Source: an uncultured Christensenellaceae bacterium | Lineage (GTDB): Bacteria > Bacillota > Clostridia > Christensenellales > Christensenellaceae | Reading direction: 5' to 3' | Length of the DNA: 45,130 bases | Assembly (NCBI GenBank): GCA_934555865.1 | Contig: CAKTFI010000007.1 | Coordinates: 1 to 45,130, forward strand | Shown here: positions 1 to 11,247 of the stretch, in pieces | How positions within the stretch are numbered: the first letter of the stretch is position 1 | How the letters are laid out: every line of letters starts with the position of its first letter | Translations under genes and position numbers: made by a program | The notes under the pieces: model-generated | What the model saw: only the letters and a program-made list of their open reading frames with translations | What the model was told of the DNA's origin: nothing | The model's database searches: none

Positions 1-29
1 AGGATCACCCCCGCTTACGCGGGGAAAAG
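1..29 (-). CRISPR. Type I-E CRISPR repeat at edge of array
   Basis: A single 28-29 nt repeat is visible. On the minus strand it has stem CCCCGC, loop GTAA, stem GCGGGG, followed by an 8-nt handle-like end GTGATCCT. This is the hairpin plus 5'-handle layout of type I-E repeats, and the GGGGGTGATCC end resembles Streptococcus-type I-E repeats. It lies 38 nt after the cas2-dnaQ stop in the same orientation, so it is most likely the leader-proximal repeat of an array running out of the window to the left. Only one copy is in view, so repeat length and spacer length cannot be measured here. Confidence 0.8.
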
Positions 30-4247: not shown

Positions 4248-4848
4248 AAGTTTGTTCCGTCCTTTCTTCTTTCGTCTGTCTGGTTTGCCGGTAAAAATCC
4301 TGTCCCCAGGCGAGGCGCACACGCGCCGCCCCTTCCGGGAACTGGAAGCTATATAGATCCACTGCCAACTGCGCATAGTCGAGCGGGATCTTGCCTCCGC
4401 GCAGCAGCCGCACGAGCCCGCGCAGGTGCTGCGCCGCCTCGGCGATGCCGTTTGCCGTCGCCGCCATCTGCAATCGCCGGGCGATGCGCCCTTCTTCCCC
4501 CTCGTCCGTTACAAGCTGCCTAGCCGCGGCCCCGAGCCGCCTGCCCGGCCGATGCATGCAGCCCTCCGGCCCAGTTGCCTCGCTGCCCTGCTGATGCAGC
4601 GCATACAGCGTGAGCGCCGTATAGACCGCCCATTCCTCCCGTGTCGGCTCGCCGGAGATGCTTAAAAATTCCTCCGGCAAGTCGCCGAACAGGATCCCCC
4701 AAAGCTCCGGCAGGTCGCCGGGCTTCTTGCCGACGCCGCGCCGCAGCATGGCCAGCTGTGCGCGCACATAGCTCCGGTCGGAAGCGTTTTGATACCTCTC
4801 CAACCGGCGATCCATGTACGCCTTTAGTTCTCTGCTTCGATTCGCCAT
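4240..4848 (-). CDS. cse2: Cse2 (CasB), Cascade small subunit
   Basis: This 202-residue, all-helical, arginine-rich protein lies between cse1 and cas7, the fixed position of CasB. Two copies form the belly of Cascade and hold the displaced strand. Recognition rests mainly on position, size and composition, plus the segment RRGVGKKPGDLPELW, which fits the conserved N-terminal block of Cse2. ATG at 4848 is preferred because GGGAGG precedes it at good distance. A TTG seven codons upstream is the only alternative. Confidence 0.88.
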   Translation of the reverse strand: MANRSRELKAYMDRRLERYQNASDRSYVRAQLAMLRRGVGKKPGDLPELWGILFGDLPEEFLSISGEPTREEWAVYTALTLYALHQQGSEATGPEGCMHRPGRRLGAAARQLVTDEGEEGRIARRLQMAATANGIAEAAQHLRGLVRLLRGGKIPLDYAQLAVDLYSFQFPEGAARVRLAWGQDFYRQTRQTKEERTEQTYV

Positions 4849-4861
4849 CTCTGTCCTCCCT

Positions 4862-6439
4862 TCATCCAAGCAGCTGCTTTATCTGATACTGAAACTGATT
4901 ATACGCTTCCGGCAGGCTATAGCGCCGGCCGTCCTGCTTCCGCCCGAGGAAGGCGGCGGGGAGCGCCCGGCCGATCAATTCCTCCCCCAGCGCCAATGCG
5001 ATGCGCCGTTCCTCCTCTCGCCATTCCTCCCGCCAGGCGGCCTTTCCTTCATAGTCCGCCTGTGGATCGATCTTTTCCAAAAAGCGCCGGAACGGGATGT
5101 CGACCCGGTAATAGAACTGTGTCTTTGCAAAGTCGGCGAGCGCACCGTTTGCATGACCGTTTGCGCTATCCAGGTTCCTGCCCAGCTGCGCGACGATCCC
5201 GGCGGCCCGATCCGCCAACGCGACCTCGTCCTGCACCCGGCGGTTCCATTCCCGTCCGGCCTCGGCCAACAGCGCCGTGTGGAACTGAATCGAGTCGCTG
5301 AAAATATCTTTTATAAAGAAGTCTTTGTCGCCGTATTTCACCCCCGCAACGCACAGGCGCACAAGCAGGCTCCGCCGCAGCATTCCGTTGTATTCCAAAA
5401 GCTCCCGCCAGCGCACGACGCCCGGCTTTCCCTTCGGCGTCTCCGTCGAGGCGATGGACGCGAATTCCCGCCAGATCTGTTTCTGCGGGTCGTGGCGGCG
5501 GGGCTGCCAATAGTCAGCCGCCTTGCCCTTCGCGTCGATATGCGCCCAGATCGTCATCTGTTCGGAAAAGGCGTTCTTTCTGTCAAAGAAATCTCCGCCC
5601 AGCAGGGTGACGCCCGTCACCCCGCGCGCATCGCGCTGAAGCAGCAGCCGCCGGGATTGCAGCGTCAAAAGCTGCATTTGGCTTTGCGGCAGGGCGATCT
5701 CCCGGCGCTCCTGTTCCGGCGGTGCGTCCAGTTCCCAAACGGGGCCGCTCTCGTCCCAGAGTTCTTCATTGTCGTCCAGCATCACAAAGTTCAGCATCAG
5801 CGTCTCAAACAGATTGTCGCCTTCCGCCCAGACGAGCCCCAATTTCCCGAGCCAACCCGCCCCCGGAGAGGGCAGCCCCTTCTGCTTCGGCTTCGCCGAG
5901 GTGTCGTCATAGCCGTTTAGGTGCAGCAGCCATCGGGCCGCTTCCGCATAGGTGAGGACCTCCTTAGCTTCCCCCGCTCTGTCCGCAAAAAACCGGTATT
6001 TATTCCCGCTTTCCGCGATCACGCCGTTCAGCTTCGCCGCCTTAAAATAGGTGCCAACCTCCGCTGCCTTCGCCTGCCAAAACGGCCGTTCCGGGTGAAA
6101 CAGGTAAAACCGCTCCCGATAGGCCTCCAGATAGGCGCGGATAGGCTGTTCCGGGAAGTGTCCGCCCTCCCAAAGCGTCTGCCAACGCTGCAGAGCGTCG
6201 TCCGCGTCCGCAAGCGGCTCGGCGCCGCCCGCCTCCCTCGTGCGGGCAAACACGGCATACAGCACCGCCAAAAGCAGGCGGAGCATCGCCGCGTCCTGCG
6301 TGGGCAATTCCCCCGCCAGCGCGCGGAAGGTGTGCGCCCGCACAAGCGCGTCCACAAGAGAGACCTCCTCCACCGTGCAATCCTGCCGCAGCACCCGGAT
6401 CCACGGTTCCTCCAGCAAACAAAATTCCTTTTCCTTCAT
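4862..6439 (-). CDS. cse1: Cse1 (CasA/Cas8e), PAM-sensing large subunit
   Basis: This 525-residue protein is close to the length of E. coli CasA. The N-terminus CLLEEPWIRVLRQDC and the FRALAGELPTQDAAMLRLL block match the Cse1 family. This subunit reads the PAM, starts target unwinding and recruits Cas3. It begins at an ATGA overlap with the cas3 stop. No truncation or frame problem is visible. Confidence 0.94.
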   Translation of the reverse strand: MKEKEFCLLEEPWIRVLRQDCTVEEVSLVDALVRAHTFRALAGELPTQDAAMLRLLLAVLYAVFARTREAGGAEPLADADDALQRWQTLWEGGHFPEQPIRAYLEAYRERFYLFHPERPFWQAKAAEVGTYFKAAKLNGVIAESGNKYRFFADRAGEAKEVLTYAEAARWLLHLNGYDDTSAKPKQKGLPSPGAGWLGKLGLVWAEGDNLFETLMLNFVMLDDNEELWDESGPVWELDAPPEQERREIALPQSQMQLLTLQSRRLLLQRDARGVTGVTLLGGDFFDRKNAFSEQMTIWAHIDAKGKAADYWQPRRHDPQKQIWREFASIASTETPKGKPGVVRWRELLEYNGMLRRSLLVRLCVAGVKYGDKDFFIKDIFSDSIQFHTALLAEAGREWNRRVQDEVALADRAAGIVAQLGRNLDSANGHANGALADFAKTQFYYRVDIPFRRFLEKIDPQADYEGKAAWREEWREEERRIALALGEELIGRALPAAFLGRKQDGRRYSLPEAYNQFQYQIKQLLG

Positions 6440-9147
6440 CGTTCCTCCTTTTCGTATTGCAGACCGTCTTCCCCGTCATAGCGGAGACGCTGCCCCAAGA
6501 GCGACGCCTCCCCCGCCGGGTCGAGCAGCAAGAACAGTTCCCGCCCCACCCGGGGCGAGCGCGCCCATTCGCGAAGCACCCCCTGCCGGACGGCCTCCAG
6601 CTGCTCGATCGTTTCTTTCATCCGATAGGGCAGGCTGAAGAAATAGGGCAGGCGCAGGCTTTGCCGCAGAATGACCTCCGCCTCTTCCCGCGAGGGCGGG
6701 GTATCCGGCGCGATGCAGAGCGCCTCTCCCGTCAGGGTGTGCAGCATGCCATCCTTTCCGTATTGAAGCAGCAGCACCTCGATCGACGCCGCCCCGTCGC
6801 GGACGCCGGCCTCCGCCTGCGCCTCGTTGATCGGCGTGAAATCGTGATCCAGGAGGCCGTGGATATAGTGCTTTCTGCTCCCCGGATCACGCGGCGCGTT
6901 GGGCAGGCACATCGATTTCGCGTTTTTGCCGCGGTCGTCCATTTCTTTTTCATACTTCGCCCGCAGGATATCCAGCCCCAGGGCCGCGTCGTTTCCCGCG
7001 GCGTATACCTCCTGCACCAGGCGCGAGATGTCTCCGGGCAATTCAATCTTTTCCGGCAGCAGGCACAGGGTCTTGCGCAGCAGATATTCGCCGTAGATGG
7101 CCTGCGCGCCGCCCTCCAGCGCCTCTCCCTCCGTCCCCAGCACGAGGCAGGCCGCCCGCTTGACGCCTGCCGGGCGGTCGCGCCCCGGGTGCCGGTGCAG
7201 CCGCCCCAGGCGCTGCAAAAGCAAGTCCATCGGACACAGGTCGGTGACCAGCACATCGAAGTCGATGTCCAAAGACTGCTCCAGGACCTGCGTCCCCACG
7301 ACCAAGTAGCCGTTCCGTTCGGCCGGAGTGGAGTGCTTGCCGAGCTTTTGCTTCAGCCGTTCCTCCTTGCGGAGGCGGTCCGGCATTGCAAATTGCGCAT
7401 GGTTCAGGATCACCTCCGCCCCCGGAAAGGCCCGGCGCAAATCGGCGGCGACCTGCTGCGCCCGCCGCACGGTATTGACGATCACGCCCGCGCAGCCGCC
7501 TGCCCGCAGGCGCTCCCGCAGGAAGGGGACAACCCCCGCATCCTCCCTGCGGAGGATCTCCACCTCGGTGGATGGGGCGGAAAGCGCTACCGTCTCCGTA
7601 TGCACGGCCGCCCCGTCCGTCCAGGTGAGCAAGGGATAGGCCTCCTCCCCCTCCAGCGCCGCGCTCCCGTCAAAGTCCCCGTGCAGGTATGCCGCCGCGA
7701 GTTCCCGGCGGCGCTTGCCGGGAAGCGTTGCGGAGAGCAGAATGACCGGCGTCTGATACGCGCCGAGCCAAGATAGCATCGCATTCAAAAACCGGCTCAT
7801 ATAGGAATCGTAGGCGTGCACCTCGTCCACGACGACCACCTTGCCCGCCAGCCCCAGGTGCTTGAGCATGAAATGCTTTTGCCGGAACGCGCCCAGCAGC
7901 AATTGATCGACCGTGCCGACCACAAAGTCGGCGAGCAGCTGCGTCTTGCGCCCGAGGAAGAAGGTATGCGCCGAAAGTCCGCCCGCAGATTCGTCCTCGT
8001 CCATCGAGGCCGCGTGTTCCGCCAGCGCCGCAAACGCTTCGTTCAACATCGCCTTGCCGTGCGCCAACTCATAGGACAACGGCGCCCACTGGGCAAACTG
8101 CGCTGCCCACCCGCTCACGCGTTCGTTCATAGCATTGGCCGTCGCCTGCGAGGGCAGGAAAAAGGCCAGCCCGCCCTCCTGCCTTTTCTCGGCCAATATC
8201 TCGCTGGCGGCGAGCGCCGCCTCCGTCTTGCCCATGCCCATCGGCGCTTCCAGGATAAACAGCCCCGGCTCTGCCGCCTCTCCGGCCGCCTTTTGCATCA
8301 TCTGCTGCACAGCGTTGCTCGCGGCAAAGCCAAACCGGGCGCAGCAAAGATCCTCGTAGCGCCATTCGTCGTTTGGCGCCCATTTCTCCGGGAGGTCCAG
8401 GCGGGCAATCGCCCGTTCACTGCGCGCGGGATAGGCCGACTCCCCCACCATATTCTGCCCATCGACAAGCGGAAAGAGCTCCGTATTGCTGGCCAGCCAG
8501 TCGCCCATGATGAGCAGCCCAGAGAAGAGCAGCTGCGCTGGCTTGTCCAGCGGATATTGCCCGAGCGTGTCCGTCAGTTCCTCCTTCGTGGTGTCCGCCA
8601 GGCGAAAGGCCTGTTCCAGCACGGCTTTCCAGCAGTCCTGCCACAGGCGAGCGTTGCCCCGGCGGCCGTACAGGTTCCCCTCGGCCGCCAGCATGTCCTC
8701 CCAGGCAGGCGCGCGCTGCAAAGTCTTTCCGTGGTGTGCGCCCACGATCGCGCAGAGCTCCTCCGGGATCTTTTCCTTATACAGGATGGCCGCGCCCGTG
8801 CAGGTGTGATGCGCAAAGGCGCGCTCTGCCGCGTCCGGCTGGGTGATGGTCCGCGGGTCCCACCCCGCGCGGGCGAATTCCAGCTCCATCCCGGCCACGC
8901 GCCCCAGCACCTGCGATTGAAAGGCGGCCGTCGCCTTGCCGATGTCGTGCACCGCACCAAGAAAGATCGCCGTTTGCAAAAACGCCTTGCGGGGGAGCTT
9001 GACCGCCCGCCGCACACCGGCCGGCAGCCATTCCTGCACCAAATAGCGCATGACCTCCGCCGTGTCCCGCAGATGCATCCAGAGTGGCAGATCGTTTTCC
9101 GGATTCTGCGGATCCGTCTTGGCGATCAGGCATTCCCATGCGGCCAT
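6436..9147 (-). CDS. cas3: Cas3, HD nuclease-helicase effector
   Basis: The 903-residue protein is the target-degrading enzyme of type I systems. The N-terminal HD nuclease shows H25 (LWMHLRDTAE), the HD pair at 67-68 (AVHDIGKA) and later HHTCTGAAIL and VGAHHGK. The SF2 helicase part shows a P-loop-like EAPMGMGKTEAAL, the DEVH box in VVVDEVHAYDSYMS, LLSATLPG and a conserved C-terminal QRLGRLHRH. ATG at 9147 is chosen because AGGAGG precedes it by nine nt. The open frame extends 37 codons further into the promoter region, but that part looks non-coding. It heads the cas operon. Confidence 0.96.
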   Translation of the reverse strand: MAAWECLIAKTDPQNPENDLPLWMHLRDTAEVMRYLVQEWLPAGVRRAVKLPRKAFLQTAIFLGAVHDIGKATAAFQSQVLGRVAGMELEFARAGWDPRTITQPDAAERAFAHHTCTGAAILYKEKIPEELCAIVGAHHGKTLQRAPAWEDMLAAEGNLYGRRGNARLWQDCWKAVLEQAFRLADTTKEELTDTLGQYPLDKPAQLLFSGLLIMGDWLASNTELFPLVDGQNMVGESAYPARSERAIARLDLPEKWAPNDEWRYEDLCCARFGFAASNAVQQMMQKAAGEAAEPGLFILEAPMGMGKTEAALAASEILAEKRQEGGLAFFLPSQATANAMNERVSGWAAQFAQWAPLSYELAHGKAMLNEAFAALAEHAASMDEDESAGGLSAHTFFLGRKTQLLADFVVGTVDQLLLGAFRQKHFMLKHLGLAGKVVVVDEVHAYDSYMSRFLNAMLSWLGAYQTPVILLSATLPGKRRRELAAAYLHGDFDGSAALEGEEAYPLLTWTDGAAVHTETVALSAPSTEVEILRREDAGVVPFLRERLRAGGCAGVIVNTVRRAQQVAADLRRAFPGAEVILNHAQFAMPDRLRKEERLKQKLGKHSTPAERNGYLVVGTQVLEQSLDIDFDVLVTDLCPMDLLLQRLGRLHRHPGRDRPAGVKRAACLVLGTEGEALEGGAQAIYGEYLLRKTLCLLPEKIELPGDISRLVQEVYAAGNDAALGLDILRAKYEKEMDDRGKNAKSMCLPNAPRDPGSRKHYIHGLLDHDFTPINEAQAEAGVRDGAASIEVLLLQYGKDGMLHTLTGEALCIAPDTPPSREEAEVILRQSLRLPYFFSLPYRMKETIEQLEAVRQGVLREWARSPRVGRELFLLLDPAGEASLLGQRLRYDGEDGLQYEKEER

Positions 9148-9176
9148 GTTTTCAATCCTCCTCTTCTCATTGTCTA

Positions 9177-9201
9177 TGGACGCGCAATTTATTGGCGTCC
9201 A
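9177..9201. promoter_or_regulatory. Inverted repeat in the cas3 5' untranslated region
   Basis: A perfect 7-bp inverted repeat, TGGACGC and GCGTCCA, is separated by 11 nt. It sits between the proposed cas3 start site and its ribosome binding site. It could be a repressor operator or an mRNA hairpin. No T run follows, so it is not a terminator. Confidence 0.4.
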
Positions 9202-9209
9202 ATTTATTT

Positions 9210-9224
9210 CTCTTACTTTTATAT
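9210..9224 (-). promoter_or_regulatory. Predicted Cascade target site in the cas3 promoter
   Basis: On the minus strand this reads ATATAAAAGTAAGAG. It matches the first 15 nt of the spacer in the small RNA at 9246-9428 (ATATAGAAGTAGGAG) except at positions 6 and 12. On the non-target strand it is preceded by AAC, placing AA where the AA of the E. coli AAG PAM lies. It overlaps the proposed cas3 -10 box, so bound Cascade should block transcription initiation. Confidence 0.6.
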
Positions 9225-9247
9225 GTTCTGTATAATAGATTCGACAA
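9218..9247 (-). promoter_or_regulatory. Candidate cas operon promoter
   Basis: On the minus strand, -35 TTGTCG (9242-9247) and -10 TATAAA (9218-9223) are 18 nt apart. A second possible -10, TATACA, lies a little upstream. The promoter begins immediately after the T run of the upstream RNA's terminator, so that RNA and the cas operon appear to be separate transcription units. The -10 lies inside the predicted Cascade target. Confidence 0.55.
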
Positions 9248-9295
9248 AAAAACCGCAATTCCTGCCTCGCAGCAAAAAAAATTGCGATCTTTTTT
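9246..9295. terminator. Bidirectional intrinsic terminator between guide RNA and cas3
   Basis: The stem is CGCAATT (9254-9260) pairing with AATTGCG (9280-9286). On the minus strand it is followed by G and seven T (9246-9252). On the plus strand six T (9290-9295) follow three nt after the stem. It would end the small RNA before the cas3 promoter and stop plus-strand reading as well. The stem is AT-containing with a large loop, so efficiency may be incomplete. Confidence 0.65.
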
Positions 9296-9322
9296 CGGCA
9301 CCCCCGCTGCCGCGGGGAATAT
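9295..9322 (-). repeat. Pseudo-repeat 2 of the CRISPR-like mini-array
   Basis: It agrees with the array repeat at the window start at 20 of 28 positions. The stem CCCCGC/GCGGGG is intact, the loop is TGCC on the plus strand rather than TTAC, and the outer handle has decayed (TCGGCA in place of GGATCA). Loss of the handle in the downstream copy is expected if only one guide is made, since this copy supplies just the 3' hairpin. Confidence 0.8.
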
Positions 9323-9343
9323 ACAAACTCCTACTTCTATATA

Positions 9344-9371
9344 GGATCACCTCCGCTGCCGCGGAGAACGC
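9344..9371 (-). repeat. Pseudo-repeat 1 of the CRISPR-like mini-array
   Basis: It agrees with the array repeat at 21 of 28 positions. The handle side GGATCA is fully kept. A C-to-T change at 9352 is matched by a G-to-A change at 9365, so the stem CTCCGC/GCGGAG still pairs. That compensatory change indicates selection for the RNA hairpin. The loop TGCC is shared with pseudo-repeat 2. The two copies are 49 nt apart, against about 61 nt in standard type I-E arrays. Confidence 0.82.
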
Positions 9372-9374
9372 TTT

Positions 9375-9406
9375 GCGCGCCCGCTGCCGCCGTCGGCAAG
9401 GCGCGC
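9375..9406 (-). other. Strong GC hairpin at the 5' part of the guide RNA
   Basis: GCGCGCC (9375-9381) pairs with GGCGCGC (9400-9406), and inside it TGCCG pairs with CGGCA around a four-base loop. It lies between the RNA start and pseudo-repeat 1. The 8-mer CCGCTGCC recurs at 9303, 9353, 9381-9382 and 9406 (slightly varied), so this segment may descend from further decayed repeats. It is not followed by a T run. Confidence 0.55.
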
Positions 9407-9433
9407 CGCTGCCCGTCACATCGGGACACTTTT

Positions 9434-9462
9434 ATTATACCTGCTGCGCCGCCGAAACGCAA
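9434..9462 (-). promoter_or_regulatory. Promoter of the CreR-like RNA
   Basis: On the minus strand, -35 TTGCGT (9457-9462), a 17-nt spacer and a perfect -10 TATAAT (9434-9439). This is clearly stronger by consensus than the cas3 promoter below it, as expected for an RNA that must be abundant relative to the cas transcript. Confidence 0.8.
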
Positions 9463-9497
9463 TTTCCGTTTTCGCGGAAATTTTCGCGTGATTTCCC

Positions 9498-9526
9498 TTG
9501 ACAACCCCCACCTGGATTGCTATAAT
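9498..9526 (+). promoter_or_regulatory. Promoter of the T-box operon
   Basis: Perfect consensus sigma-A promoter: TTGACA (9498-9503), 17-nt spacer, TATAAT (9521-9526). It diverges from the CreR-like RNA promoter and begins the T-box leader. Confidence 0.92.
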
Positions 9527-9544
9527 GCCTGTAATTTCACAAAC

Positions 9545-9805
9545 GAAATGCAGCGAAGGAATTATGTGCTTCTTCCCATCGTATAGAGAGTTGACGGTTG
9601 GTGCAAGTCAATCCAAGGGAGAATGCGCAGTCTCGTTCCGGAGCAGGATTCCCGATACTAAGGAATCCCGGCCGCCCCGTTACCATGGCTGGAGGTTTTT
9701 TTGAACCTTGACAGAGAGCGGCTGCCCCCGGGGCAGCAAGCAGGGTGGTACCGCGATCCACAAAAATCGTCCCTGAAGCCAGTTGGCTTCGGGGATTTTT
9801 ATTTT
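9545..9805 (+). promoter_or_regulatory. T-box riboswitch, leucine specifier
   Basis: The 14-nt T-box sequence AGGGTGGTACCGCG is at 9742-9755. It is followed by a terminator whose stem TCCCTGAAGCC (9770-9780) pairs with GGCTTCGGGGA (9785-9795) before a T-rich run. Stem I contains the GAGAG and GGTTGGTGCAAG elements. Pairing GTGC (9566-9569) with GCGC (9625-9628) and GGAA with TTCC (9636-9639) leaves a specifier loop holding CTC at 9632-9634, followed by a purine. That is the leucine codon usual in leu and ilv T-boxes. Uncharged tRNA-Leu should allow readthrough into the two genes below. The specifier comes from hand folding. Confidence 0.9.
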
Positions 9806-9825
9806 CCTACAAAAAAGGAGTACGG

Positions 9826-11247
9826 ATGTTGAAGACCATTGCATTTACGGATATTACATTGCGCGAAGAGGCGCACCGCATCGACAATGCCTTGAGTTTC
9901 AAGGAAAAGATCGAGATCGCCAAGCAGCTCGACAAGCTGCAGGTGGACGCGATCGAGTTCGCCCCCTTGCAGGACGAAAAGGCGGATACGCTGCTCATCA
10001 AGACCGTCGCCGCGCTCGTGCGGCAGAGCGCCGTCGCGCTGCCCATCGCGCTGACGCAGGCATCCATCGCCGCCTCCTGGGAGGCGATCCGGCACGCCGC
10101 GCACCCCCGGTTGGTCGTGAGCGTCCCCACCTCGCCGATCCAGATGGCCTACACCTGCCAAAAGAAGGCGCCCGCTGTGCTGGACATGATCTCGCAGCTC
10201 GTCGCGCAGGCCAAGGCCGTGTGCCCGGAGGTGGAATTCGCCGCCGAGGACGCCAGCCGCAGCGAGCTGCCCTTCCTGGCTGCCGCCATCTCCGCGGCGA
10301 TCGAGGCGGGCGCTTCCGTCATCACCGTGTGCGACACGGCGGGCGTCTTCCTCCCGGAGGAATGCCGGGCCTTTGTTCAAACACTCTATGCCCAAGTGCC
10401 CGCGCTTTCGGAGGTCACGCTCTATGTGCAGTGCGCTAACACGCTCGGCATGGCCGCCGCCTGCGCCATCGAGGCCGTGCAGGCCGGGGCGGCGGGCGTC
10501 AAGGCCTCTGCCAGTCAGGGTTGCTTCGCCATCCTCTCGGACATGGCCAATGTCATCCGCCACCGCGGCGATTCGCTCGGGCTGTGCTGCCGCTTAAAAT
10601 TCACCGAGATGCAGCGCATCGCCGGGCAGATCGCCTGGATCACGCAGACGCGCCGGGCGGAATCAACCCCGTTTGAAAACGGCGCCAACAACGCCGTTCC
10701 GCAGATCTCCTTTGACAAACACGACACGCTGGAGGCGGTCATCAAGGGCATCCGGCAGCTGGGCTACGATCTCTCCGAGGAGGACAACATCAAGGTCTAT
10801 GAGGCGTTCTGCCTGGTCGCGCAGAAAAAGAGCATCGGCGCCAAGGAGCTGGACGCGATCATCGCCAGCACAGCCCTACAGGTCCCGCCGACCTATAAGC
10901 TCAGCAGCTATGTCATCAACAGTGGCAATGTGATCAGCGCCTCGGCCAACATCCAGATGGAAAAGAACGGGCAGCCCGTCTCCGGCATCTGCGTCGGCGA
11001 CGGCCCGATCGACGCGGCCTTTCTGGCGATCGAGCAAATCGCCGGCCGGCACTACGAATTGGACGATTTTCAGATCCAGGCAGTCACCGAGGGCCGGGAG
11101 GCCATGGGCTCCGCACTCGTGCGGCTGCGCTCCGGCGGCAAGCTCTATTCCGGCAACGGCATTTCCACCGACATCATCGGCGCCAGCATCAAGGCCTATC
11201 TGAACGCGCTTAACAAGATCGTCTATGAAGAGGAGGGCAACGAATGA
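9826..11247 (+). CDS. LeuA-like protein with degenerate active site and intact regulatory domain
   Basis: This 473-residue member of the 2-isopropylmalate/homocitrate synthase (DRE-TIM) family has the C-terminal LeuA allosteric domain (about 345-473, GDGPIDAAFLAIE, TDIIGASIKAYLNALNK). The metal site is altered. RDG of the family is R13-E14-E15, the HxH pair is Q202 and A204 (YVQCANTLGM), and the N of NGIGERAGN is S230 (VKASASQG). Ordinary LeuA catalysis is therefore doubtful. It may have another reaction, or serve as a leucine sensor or partner subunit. ATG at 9826 follows AAGGAG. An upstream in-frame start would lie in the T-box terminator. It overlaps the next gene by 4 nt and is leucine T-box controlled. 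Confidence 0.85.
   Translation: MLKTIAFTDITLREEAHRIDNALSFKEKIEIAKQLDKLQVDAIEFAPLQDEKADTLLIKTVAALVRQSAVALPIALTQASIAASWEAIRHAAHPRLVVSVPTSPIQMAYTCQKKAPAVLDMISQLVAQAKAVCPEVEFAAEDASRSELPFLAAAISAAIEAGASVITVCDTAGVFLPEECRAFVQTLYAQVPALSEVTLYVQCANTLGMAAACAIEAVQAGAAGVKASASQGCFAILSDMANVIRHRGDSLGLCCRLKFTEMQRIAGQIAWITQTRRAESTPFENGANNAVPQISFDKHDTLEAVIKGIRQLGYDLSEEDNIKVYEAFCLVAQKKSIGAKELDAIIASTALQVPPTYKLSSYVINSGNVISASANIQMEKNGQPVSGICVGDGPIDAAFLAIEQIAGRHYELDDFQIQAVTEGREAMGSALVRLRSGGKLYSGNGISTDIIGASIKAYLNALNKIVYEEEGNE

What the first reader, a model, noticed from the sequence alone, without database searches (positions are those of the whole stretch)
9210..9428. CRISPR-like mini-array RNA whose spacer matches the cas3 promoter except at positions 6 and 12
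Seen in sequence: a promoter-driven, terminator-ended RNA with two degenerate repeats encodes a spacer beginning ATATAGAAGTAGGAG. The cas3 promoter contains ATATAAAAGTAAGAG over its -10. The only differences in 15 nt are at positions 6 and 12. Known: in type I-E Cascade every sixth guide base is flipped out and does not pair, so these mismatches should cost nothing. Pairing ends after 15 nt, which should favour binding without Cas3 cleavage. Inference: this is a CreR-like autorepressor that lets Cascade shut down its own operon, sensing Cascade and crRNA levels and possibly anti-CRISPR attack. CreR RNAs are known in other subtypes; this locus may be undescribed.
Basis: partly seen in the sequence, partly recalled or inferred. 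Interest (0 to 1): 0.93.

Follow-up and report, generated by a model that had tools for sequence, protein, structure and literature searches.

The report
Self-silencing guide RNA beside cas3
Beside its cas3 gene this bacterium carries a tiny two-repeat CRISPR-like array whose guide matches 15 bases just upstream of cas3 except at two positions that such CRISPR complexes are known not to read, and a related genome has changed guide and target in step, so the RNA likely lets the CRISPR machinery turn down its own genes.

Summary
Upstream of a complete type I-E cas operon lies a two-repeat mini-array with a 20-nt spacer. Its guide matches a site ending 62 nt before the cas3 start at all 13 pairing positions among 1-15, with mismatches only at 6 and 12 and an AAC PAM. 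None of 20,000 shuffles reaches this. The decisive new evidence is covariation: in the nearest genome held (G001), four bases differ in the guide and the same four differ, identically, in the target, while both hairpins and the handle are unchanged. Among 137 cas3-upstream regions (125 distinct), 11 distinct two-stem units with an intact handle were found. Eight have a guide matching near cas3 with an AAC or AAT PAM, pairing 14-17 nt, and, in positions 1-14, mismatches only at 6 and/or 12; three have no such match. A review states that CreRs act in types I-B, I-E and V-A, so this is a new member of a known kind. Possibly new: spacers of 20 or 32 nt, two Cas7 steps apart.

The parts
9434..9462 (-). 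Mini-array promoter: TTGCGT (9462-9457), 17 nt, TATAAT (9439-9434)
   Evidence: Read by eye; both hexamers unchanged in G001; -35 only 3 of 6, not listed by the scan
9246..9428 (-). Predicted CreR precursor RNA (about 180 nt)
   Evidence: Inferred from promoter and terminator; 9430-9246 folds at -86.4 kcal/mol, z -3.9; no expression data
9343..9371 (-). Degenerate repeat 1, GCGTTCTCCGCGGCAGCGGAGGTGATCCT; stem kept by a C-G to T-A change on both sides; ends in intact 8-nt handle GTGATCCT
   Evidence: compared with the canonical repeat of the G001 array; stem of 7; one base (9369) differs in G001, outside stem and handle
9323..9342 (-). Guide (spacer), 20 nt, ATATAGAAGTAGGAGTTTGT
   Evidence: unit length 49 against 61 in the canonical G001 array
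9294..9322 (-). Degenerate repeat 2: Cas6-type hairpin CCCCGC-GGCA-GCGGGG kept, handle lost (GTGCCGAA)
9246..9286 (-). Intrinsic terminator separating the mini-array from cas3
   Evidence: unchanged in G001, where one base just before it is missing
9225..9227 (-). PAM, AAC
   Evidence: AAC or AAT at the eight matched sites; AAN is the PAM of St-Cascade (PMC10281945 passages)
9210..9224 (-). Target site ATATAAAAGTAAGAG upstream of cas3; matches the guide at 1-5, 7-11, 13-15
6436..9147 (-). cas3 (ATG 9147-9145, AGGAGG at 9162-9157)
   Evidence: TIGR01587 and TIGR01596 above cut-off
4862..6439 (-). casA/cse1 (type I-E)
   Evidence: TIGR02547
4240..4869 (-). casB/cse2
   Evidence: TIGR02548
3186..4376 (-). 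cas7/casC
   Evidence: TIGR01869
2521..3204 (-). cas5e/casD
   Evidence: TIGR01868
1890..2516 (-). cas6e/casE
   Evidence: TIGR01907
943..1893 (-). cas1e
   Evidence: TIGR03638
68..955 (-). cas2e fused to a DnaQ-like exonuclease domain
   Evidence: TIGR01873 over residues 4-88, exonuclease models over about 114-294
1..29 (-). Canonical I-E repeat, probably the first of an array that runs off the window
   Evidence: same unit as the 61-nt-period array that follows cas2 in G001

Best explanation
The locus is a two-repeat mini-array whose 20-nt guide matches the DNA just upstream of cas3 at every pairing position from 1 to 15, and it likely encodes a CreR-type RNA that would guide the cell's own type I-E Cascade to sit at the cas3 start region and repress the cas3-casABCDE-cas1-cas2 operon. 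Shown by sequence: the repeats, guide, target, AAC trinucleotide in the PAM place, terminator, and covariation of guide and target in one relative. Inferred: the RNA is made and cut by Cas6e; Cascade loads it; binding blocks RNA polymerase at or just after initiation; pairing that stops at 15 nt avoids Cas3 cleavage. Expected consequence, untested: repression weakens when other crRNAs or an anti-CRISPR tie up Cascade, so cas expression rises.
For: (1) Match of 13 of 13 pairing positions with AAC before it; 0 of 20,000 shuffles reach it. (2) In G001 the guide differs at 3, 5, 8 and 9 and the target differs at the same four positions to the same bases; by my arithmetic the chance that four target changes coincide in place and base is about 1 in 110,000. 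From the repeat-1 stem to the PAM, about 144 nt, nothing else differs but one missing base. (3) Eight of 11 distinct intact-handle units, in seven lineages, have a guide matching near cas3, all AAC or AAT; these eight sites carry 13 mismatches in positions 1-14, all at 6 or 12, and ranking with no position excused puts the AAN site first in seven and tied first in L084. (4) Cross control: 110 guide-by-foreign-region pairs gave one 12 and five 11s of 13, none of the six with AAN. (5) The repeat's last base is T or C in 14 of 14 counted G001 units, as expected if it is PAM-derived from AAY. (6) E. coli Cascade binds with as few as 5 bp, needs more than 18 bp for interference or priming, and flips out every sixth base (PMC5904413 passages incl. 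abstract). (7) In type I-B, spacers of 20-24 nt repress without adaptation (PMC10989794 passages).
Against: No expression or repression data. Only one close relative was found, so covariation rests on one pair of genomes. Three of 11 distinct intact-handle units (L075, L087, L141) have no match near cas3, and L082 (one-base-altered handle) only 11 of 13. In E. coli, partly paired off-target Cascade did not alter transcription, and promoter repression is said to fall strongly with six PAM-distal mismatches (PMC5904413 passages); the I-B study found 20-nt spacers weaker repressors than 21-24. Position 6 contributed to off-target binding for some E. coli guides. cas3's promoter is not firmly located. 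In L066, L082 and L084 the target lies upstream of the mini-array, so there the array's own promoter may be what is repressed.
Confidence: 0.85

Rival explanations
1. It is the antitoxin half of a CreTA-like module: the guide represses a small toxic RNA encoded between the target and cas3, and cas3 is only a neighbour.
For: CreA RNAs have the same anatomy (degenerate repeats, partial match to a promoter; PMC9458426 passages), and an ATG-AGA-AGA run lies at 9170-9162 in the gap. In L083 and L123 the gap from target to cas3 is longer and could hold a small RNA.
Against: In the window the gap from target to cas3 start is 62 nt and holds cas3's own ribosome site; the AGA-AGA run is ATG-AGA-AAA in G001, and the gap is among the diverged parts of the region.
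Confidence: 0.06
2. A decayed end of a former CRISPR array whose spacer matches the promoter by chance or by old self-acquisition.
For: The repeats are degenerate and the unit is short (49 against 61).
Against: Match never reached in 20,000 shuffles; four matched changes with G001; stems, handle and terminator are kept while the leader has diverged. A captured spacer would be expected to match at 6, 12 and beyond 15 too.
Confidence: 0.04
3. Guide and target stay alike through gene conversion between two copies, with no guiding function.
For: Same four changes in both copies.
Against: Conversion would tend to erase the differences at 6 and 12, yet both genomes keep them; the likeness stops at 15; the same 6n rule recurs in unrelated guides.
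Confidence: 0.02
4. The mismatches at 6 and 12 are tolerated as G-T wobbles rather than as flipped-out bases.
For: In the window and G001 both are guide G against target-strand T; so are position 12 in L123 and L138 and position 6 in L083.
Against: The other 6n mismatches (L066, L083 position 12, L084, L126) are C-T, A-A, C-A, G-A and U-T types that cannot wobble.
Confidence: 0.03

Closest known systems
CreR (cas-regulating RNAs), reported in type I-B, I-E and V-A
   Same: Mini-CRISPR RNA with partial complementarity to the cas promoter region, autorepression (PMC13131331 passage; PMC12737573 passages; PMC12948488 passage)
   Different: No expression test here; 20-nt spacer, two Cas7 steps shorter than the canonical 32. 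Whether the primary paper has this lineage or this spacer class is unknown: it is not held
CreA of CreTA (types I-B, I-F)
   Same: Degenerate repeats and a partly matching guide used by Cascade for repression (PMC9458426 passages; PMC10097628, start of abstract in the listing)
   Different: Target lies before cas3, with no conserved toxin RNA seen in the window-G001 comparison
scaRNA of Francisella novicida, and natural single-guide Cas9 autoregulation
   Same: CRISPR-derived RNA with a short match (15 bp for scaRNA, PMC9458426 passage) that turns the effector into a repressor
   Different: Those use Cas9; the operon here is Cascade type I-E. The single-guide Cas9 case is recalled

Membership tests
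CreR | Single-spacer mini-array with degenerate repeats beside cas genes | tested here: met
CreR | Guide partly complementary to the DNA upstream of its own cas operon, with a PAM | tested here: met
   13 of 13 pairing positions, AAC; shuffles and cross control. The PAM of this system itself is inferred
CreR | Target overlaps the cas promoter proper | tested here: inconclusive
   No consensus cas3 promoter called; the candidate -10 in the target is not conserved
CreR | Cognate Cas effector present and of a subtype with CreRs | tested here: met
   Complete type I-E operon; I-E named
CreR | Guide-target pairing kept by selection | tested here: met
   Four covarying positions with G001; one genome pair only
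CreR | RNA expressed, processed and bound by Cascade | not testable with these tools
   No RNA data
CreR | Guide-dependent repression of cas genes, relieved by crRNA load or anti-CRISPR | not testable with these tools
   Needs a reporter
CreTA | Toxin RNA gene under the targeted promoter | tested here: inconclusive
   62-nt gap, AGA-AGA run not conserved; no growth test possible
Canonical CRISPR array | Conserved repeats at 61-nt period | tested here: not met
   49-nt unit, both repeats degenerate

The most novel reading that the evidence does not exclude
Type I-E CreRs form a family spread across Clostridia and possibly beyond that comes in two quantised forms, with 32-nt or 20-nt guides. The short form would load a natural Cascade lacking two Cas7 subunits, a dedicated repressor unable to call Cas3, and guide-target coevolution in the family records in living genomes which bases Cascade reads (6 and 12 are free, the rest of 1-14 are not).
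Probability: 0.4. Interest if true: 0.72.

Novelty: new member of a known kind. Interest (0 to 1): 0.55.

Why it matters
If it works as inferred, the CRISPR complex is its own repressor and a gauge of free Cascade, so cells could raise cas expression when guides or anti-CRISPRs tie Cascade up. The covarying pair from two related genomes is a ready-made compensatory-mutation experiment, and the 6n mismatch pattern in seven lineages offers a natural test of the structural flip-out rule. The 20-nt class would be a natural design for a bind-only Cascade.

Tried and rejected
Rfam on 8900-9900: only the divergent T-box, no family for the mini-array. Viral contigs searched with one mini-array pattern: no match. 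Close relatives: of 18 genomes of G001's family two have a Cas3 match, G001 and the distant G008 at 33%; of 396 genomes drawn from the order 11 match at E up to 1e-100, of which only G001 is close. The first survey scans (output of 26 was cut) gave many coding-repeat and array hits; they were set aside because they lacked a two-stem mini-array. Gardnerella guides (L075, L087) match no site upstream of cas3; an 11-nt AAC site inside the 3' end of cas3 is shared by both and is left open. L141 keeps an intact handle on both repeats and may be an ordinary short array. CreT, wobble and gene-conversion readings are under rivals. The primary CreR paper is not held; its content is taken only from reviews.

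Left out of the survey before counting: Cas3 matches that were partial, distant or lacked upstream DNA (L005-L009, L021, L025, L026, L061, L063, L065, L068, L072, L080, L116, L117), duplicates L118 and L152, and four matches that were given no locus. One search kept the best 80 of 566 loci. 137 regions remained, 125 distinct; 2 have under 400 nt upstream.

Full report
What is there. The - strand from 9147 down to 68 carries a complete type I-E operon: cas3, casA, casB, cas7, cas5e, cas6e, cas1e and a cas2e-DnaQ fusion, each above the NCBIfam cut-off of an I-E or cas3 domain model. A canonical repeat at window 1-29 follows cas2 and probably begins an array that runs off the window; the nearest held genome, G001, has that array with 61-nt units at the same place. 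Upstream of cas3, on the same strand, lie a TATAAT with a weak -35, a leader, a degenerate repeat ending in the intact handle GTGATCCT, the guide ATATAGAAGTAGGAGTTTGT, a second degenerate repeat with a good hairpin but no handle, and a terminator with a long stem.

The match. The guide agrees with 9224-9210 at all of positions 1-15 except 6 and 12, and then stops. The site is preceded by AAC. No other place in the 45-kb window, the guide itself apart, reaches 11 of the 13 pairing positions, and none of 20,000 shuffles of the region reaches 13; nine reach 12. AAN is the PAM of the I-E Cascade of Streptococcus thermophilus (PMC10281945 passages); AAC and AAT are listed for I-E repeats of Bifidobacterium and Lactobacillus (PMC8482600 passages). 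In E. coli every sixth crRNA base is flipped out, though position 6 still helped off-target binding for some guides (PMC5904413 passage).

Covariation. G001 (Cas3 90 and 89% identical over its two halves) has the same mini-array with guide ATGTGGAGATAGGAG and upstream site ATGTGAAGATAAGAG. Positions 3, 5, 8 and 9 differ from the window in both guide and target, to the same bases; 6 and 12 stay mismatched in both genomes. From the repeat-1 stem through the PAM (9368-9225, about 144 nt) nothing else differs except one missing base between repeat 2 and the terminator, whereas the leader before (including one base at the start of repeat 1) and the stretch after the target are diverged. All four changes are A-G transitions. 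Gene conversion would tend to remove the 6 and 12 mismatches. The TATAAA inside the window target is TGTGAA in G001, so it is probably not the -10; a conserved TATTAT just upstream fits better and places the target at the transcription start.

Survey. Cas3 searches gave 137 usable cas3-upstream regions, window and G001 included, 125 distinct (what was left out is listed under Tried and rejected). A structural scan (handle behind a stem, a second stem at one of nine preset spacings, no further stems at array distance) gave 12 rows with a perfect GTGATCC handle, 11 distinct (L083 and L110 are one species), each with the guide within 350 nt of the cas3 match. Ten of the 11 also appear among the hits of the earlier scan, which set no spacing; L141 was dropped there because a second intact handle lies at array distance. 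Eight of the 11 have a guide matching near cas3 at 12 or 13 of 13 pairing positions with AAC or AAT: the window, G001 (L001), L066 Ornithomonoglobus, L083 Ndiopella, L084 Kineothrix alysoides, and the unnamed L123, L126 and L138. Three have none: L075 and L087 (Gardnerella) and L141, whose two repeats both keep the handle, so it may be an ordinary short array. L082, with a one-base-altered handle, has 11 of 13 with AAC. Each of 11 guides against the ten other regions (110 pairs) gave one 12 and five 11s, none of the six with AAN.

Rule of mismatches. Ranking sites by plain matches over 1-14 with no position excused, the AAN site is first in seven of the eight and ties with a GTA site in L084. 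Those eight sites have 13 mismatches in positions 1-14, all at 6 or 12; position 12 is mismatched in eight of eight, position 6 in five of eight. Window and G001 share ancestry, so the independent lineages number seven. Shuffled guides reached 12 or more of 14 in 62 of 3,600 trials, 8 with AAN. Six of the 13 mismatches (L066, L083 position 12, both in L084, both in L126) cannot be G-T wobbles. Pairing runs end at 14 to 17, below the more than 18 bp needed for interference or priming in E. coli.

Spacer length. Stem-to-stem distance is 49 nt, within one base, in the window, G001 and the two Gardnerella loci and 61 nt, within one base, in the other eight guides examined (in L082 measured from the handle, its first stem not being detected): spacers of 20 or 32 nt. 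Twelve is two six-base Cas7 steps; a Cascade with two fewer Cas7 is inferred, not shown. PMC10989794 cites stable Cascades of altered stoichiometry and found that 20-24-nt I-B spacers repress without adaptation, 20 nt being weaker than 21-24 (passages).

Placement of targets. In the window, G001 and L138 the target is on the cas3-sense strand between array and cas3; in L083, L123 and L126 it is there on the other strand; in L066, L082 and L084 it lies upstream of the array, in L066 directly before a TTGACA-17-TATTAT that would drive the array itself (promoter read by eye). So some members may repress the array together with cas3.

Against. No RNA or repression data exist here. E. coli off-target Cascade with partial R-loops did not alter transcription, and repression is said to drop with six PAM-distal mismatches. 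Covariation rests on one genome pair. The Gardnerella guides lack a site upstream of cas3; they share an 11-nt AAC site in the 3' end of cas3. The T-or-C rule for the last repeat base holds in 14 of 14 G001 units, but in another array (G056, L012) 8 of 25 units have A or G.

Known or new. [quoted passage not shown] another describes crRNA and Acr sensing (PMC12737573 passages). The primary paper is not held. In the listings (titles and starts of abstracts; one search listed nothing) I saw none that announces the 6n rule or the 20-nt class for CreRs, but I did not read those papers through and only open-licence papers are held. The locus is therefore filed as a new member of a known kind.

Noticed in passing
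9544-9777 +: T-box leader (Rfam RF00230, 101.8 bits, E 4.1e-23) with a perfect TTGACA-17-TATAAT promoter at 9498-9526, heading the divergent operon.
   Followed up: no
68-955 -: Cas2e is fused to a DnaQ-like exonuclease domain.
   Followed up: no
L075 and L087 (Gardnerella vaginalis), guides at 4743 and 4739 +; site 7690-7703 -: Mini-arrays with 20-nt spacers sharing the first 11 guide bases; no match upstream of cas3, but a shared AAC-preceded 11-nt match (mismatch at 6) inside the 3' end of cas3, before casA.
   Followed up: partly
L141, guide 299 nt before the cas3 match: A two-repeat unit whose guide has no match in the region searched; both repeats keep the handle, so it may be an ordinary short array.
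   Followed up: partly
G001 array (L011) and other arrays: The base after GTGATCC at the repeat end is T or C in 14 of 14 counted G001 units, as if derived from an AAY PAM; other arrays mostly agree, but 8 of 25 units in L012 have A or G.
   Followed up: partly
L138, second repeat of the mini-array: The second repeat hairpin has lost its handle and runs straight into a run of T, so it may serve as Cas6 hairpin and terminator at once.
   Followed up: no
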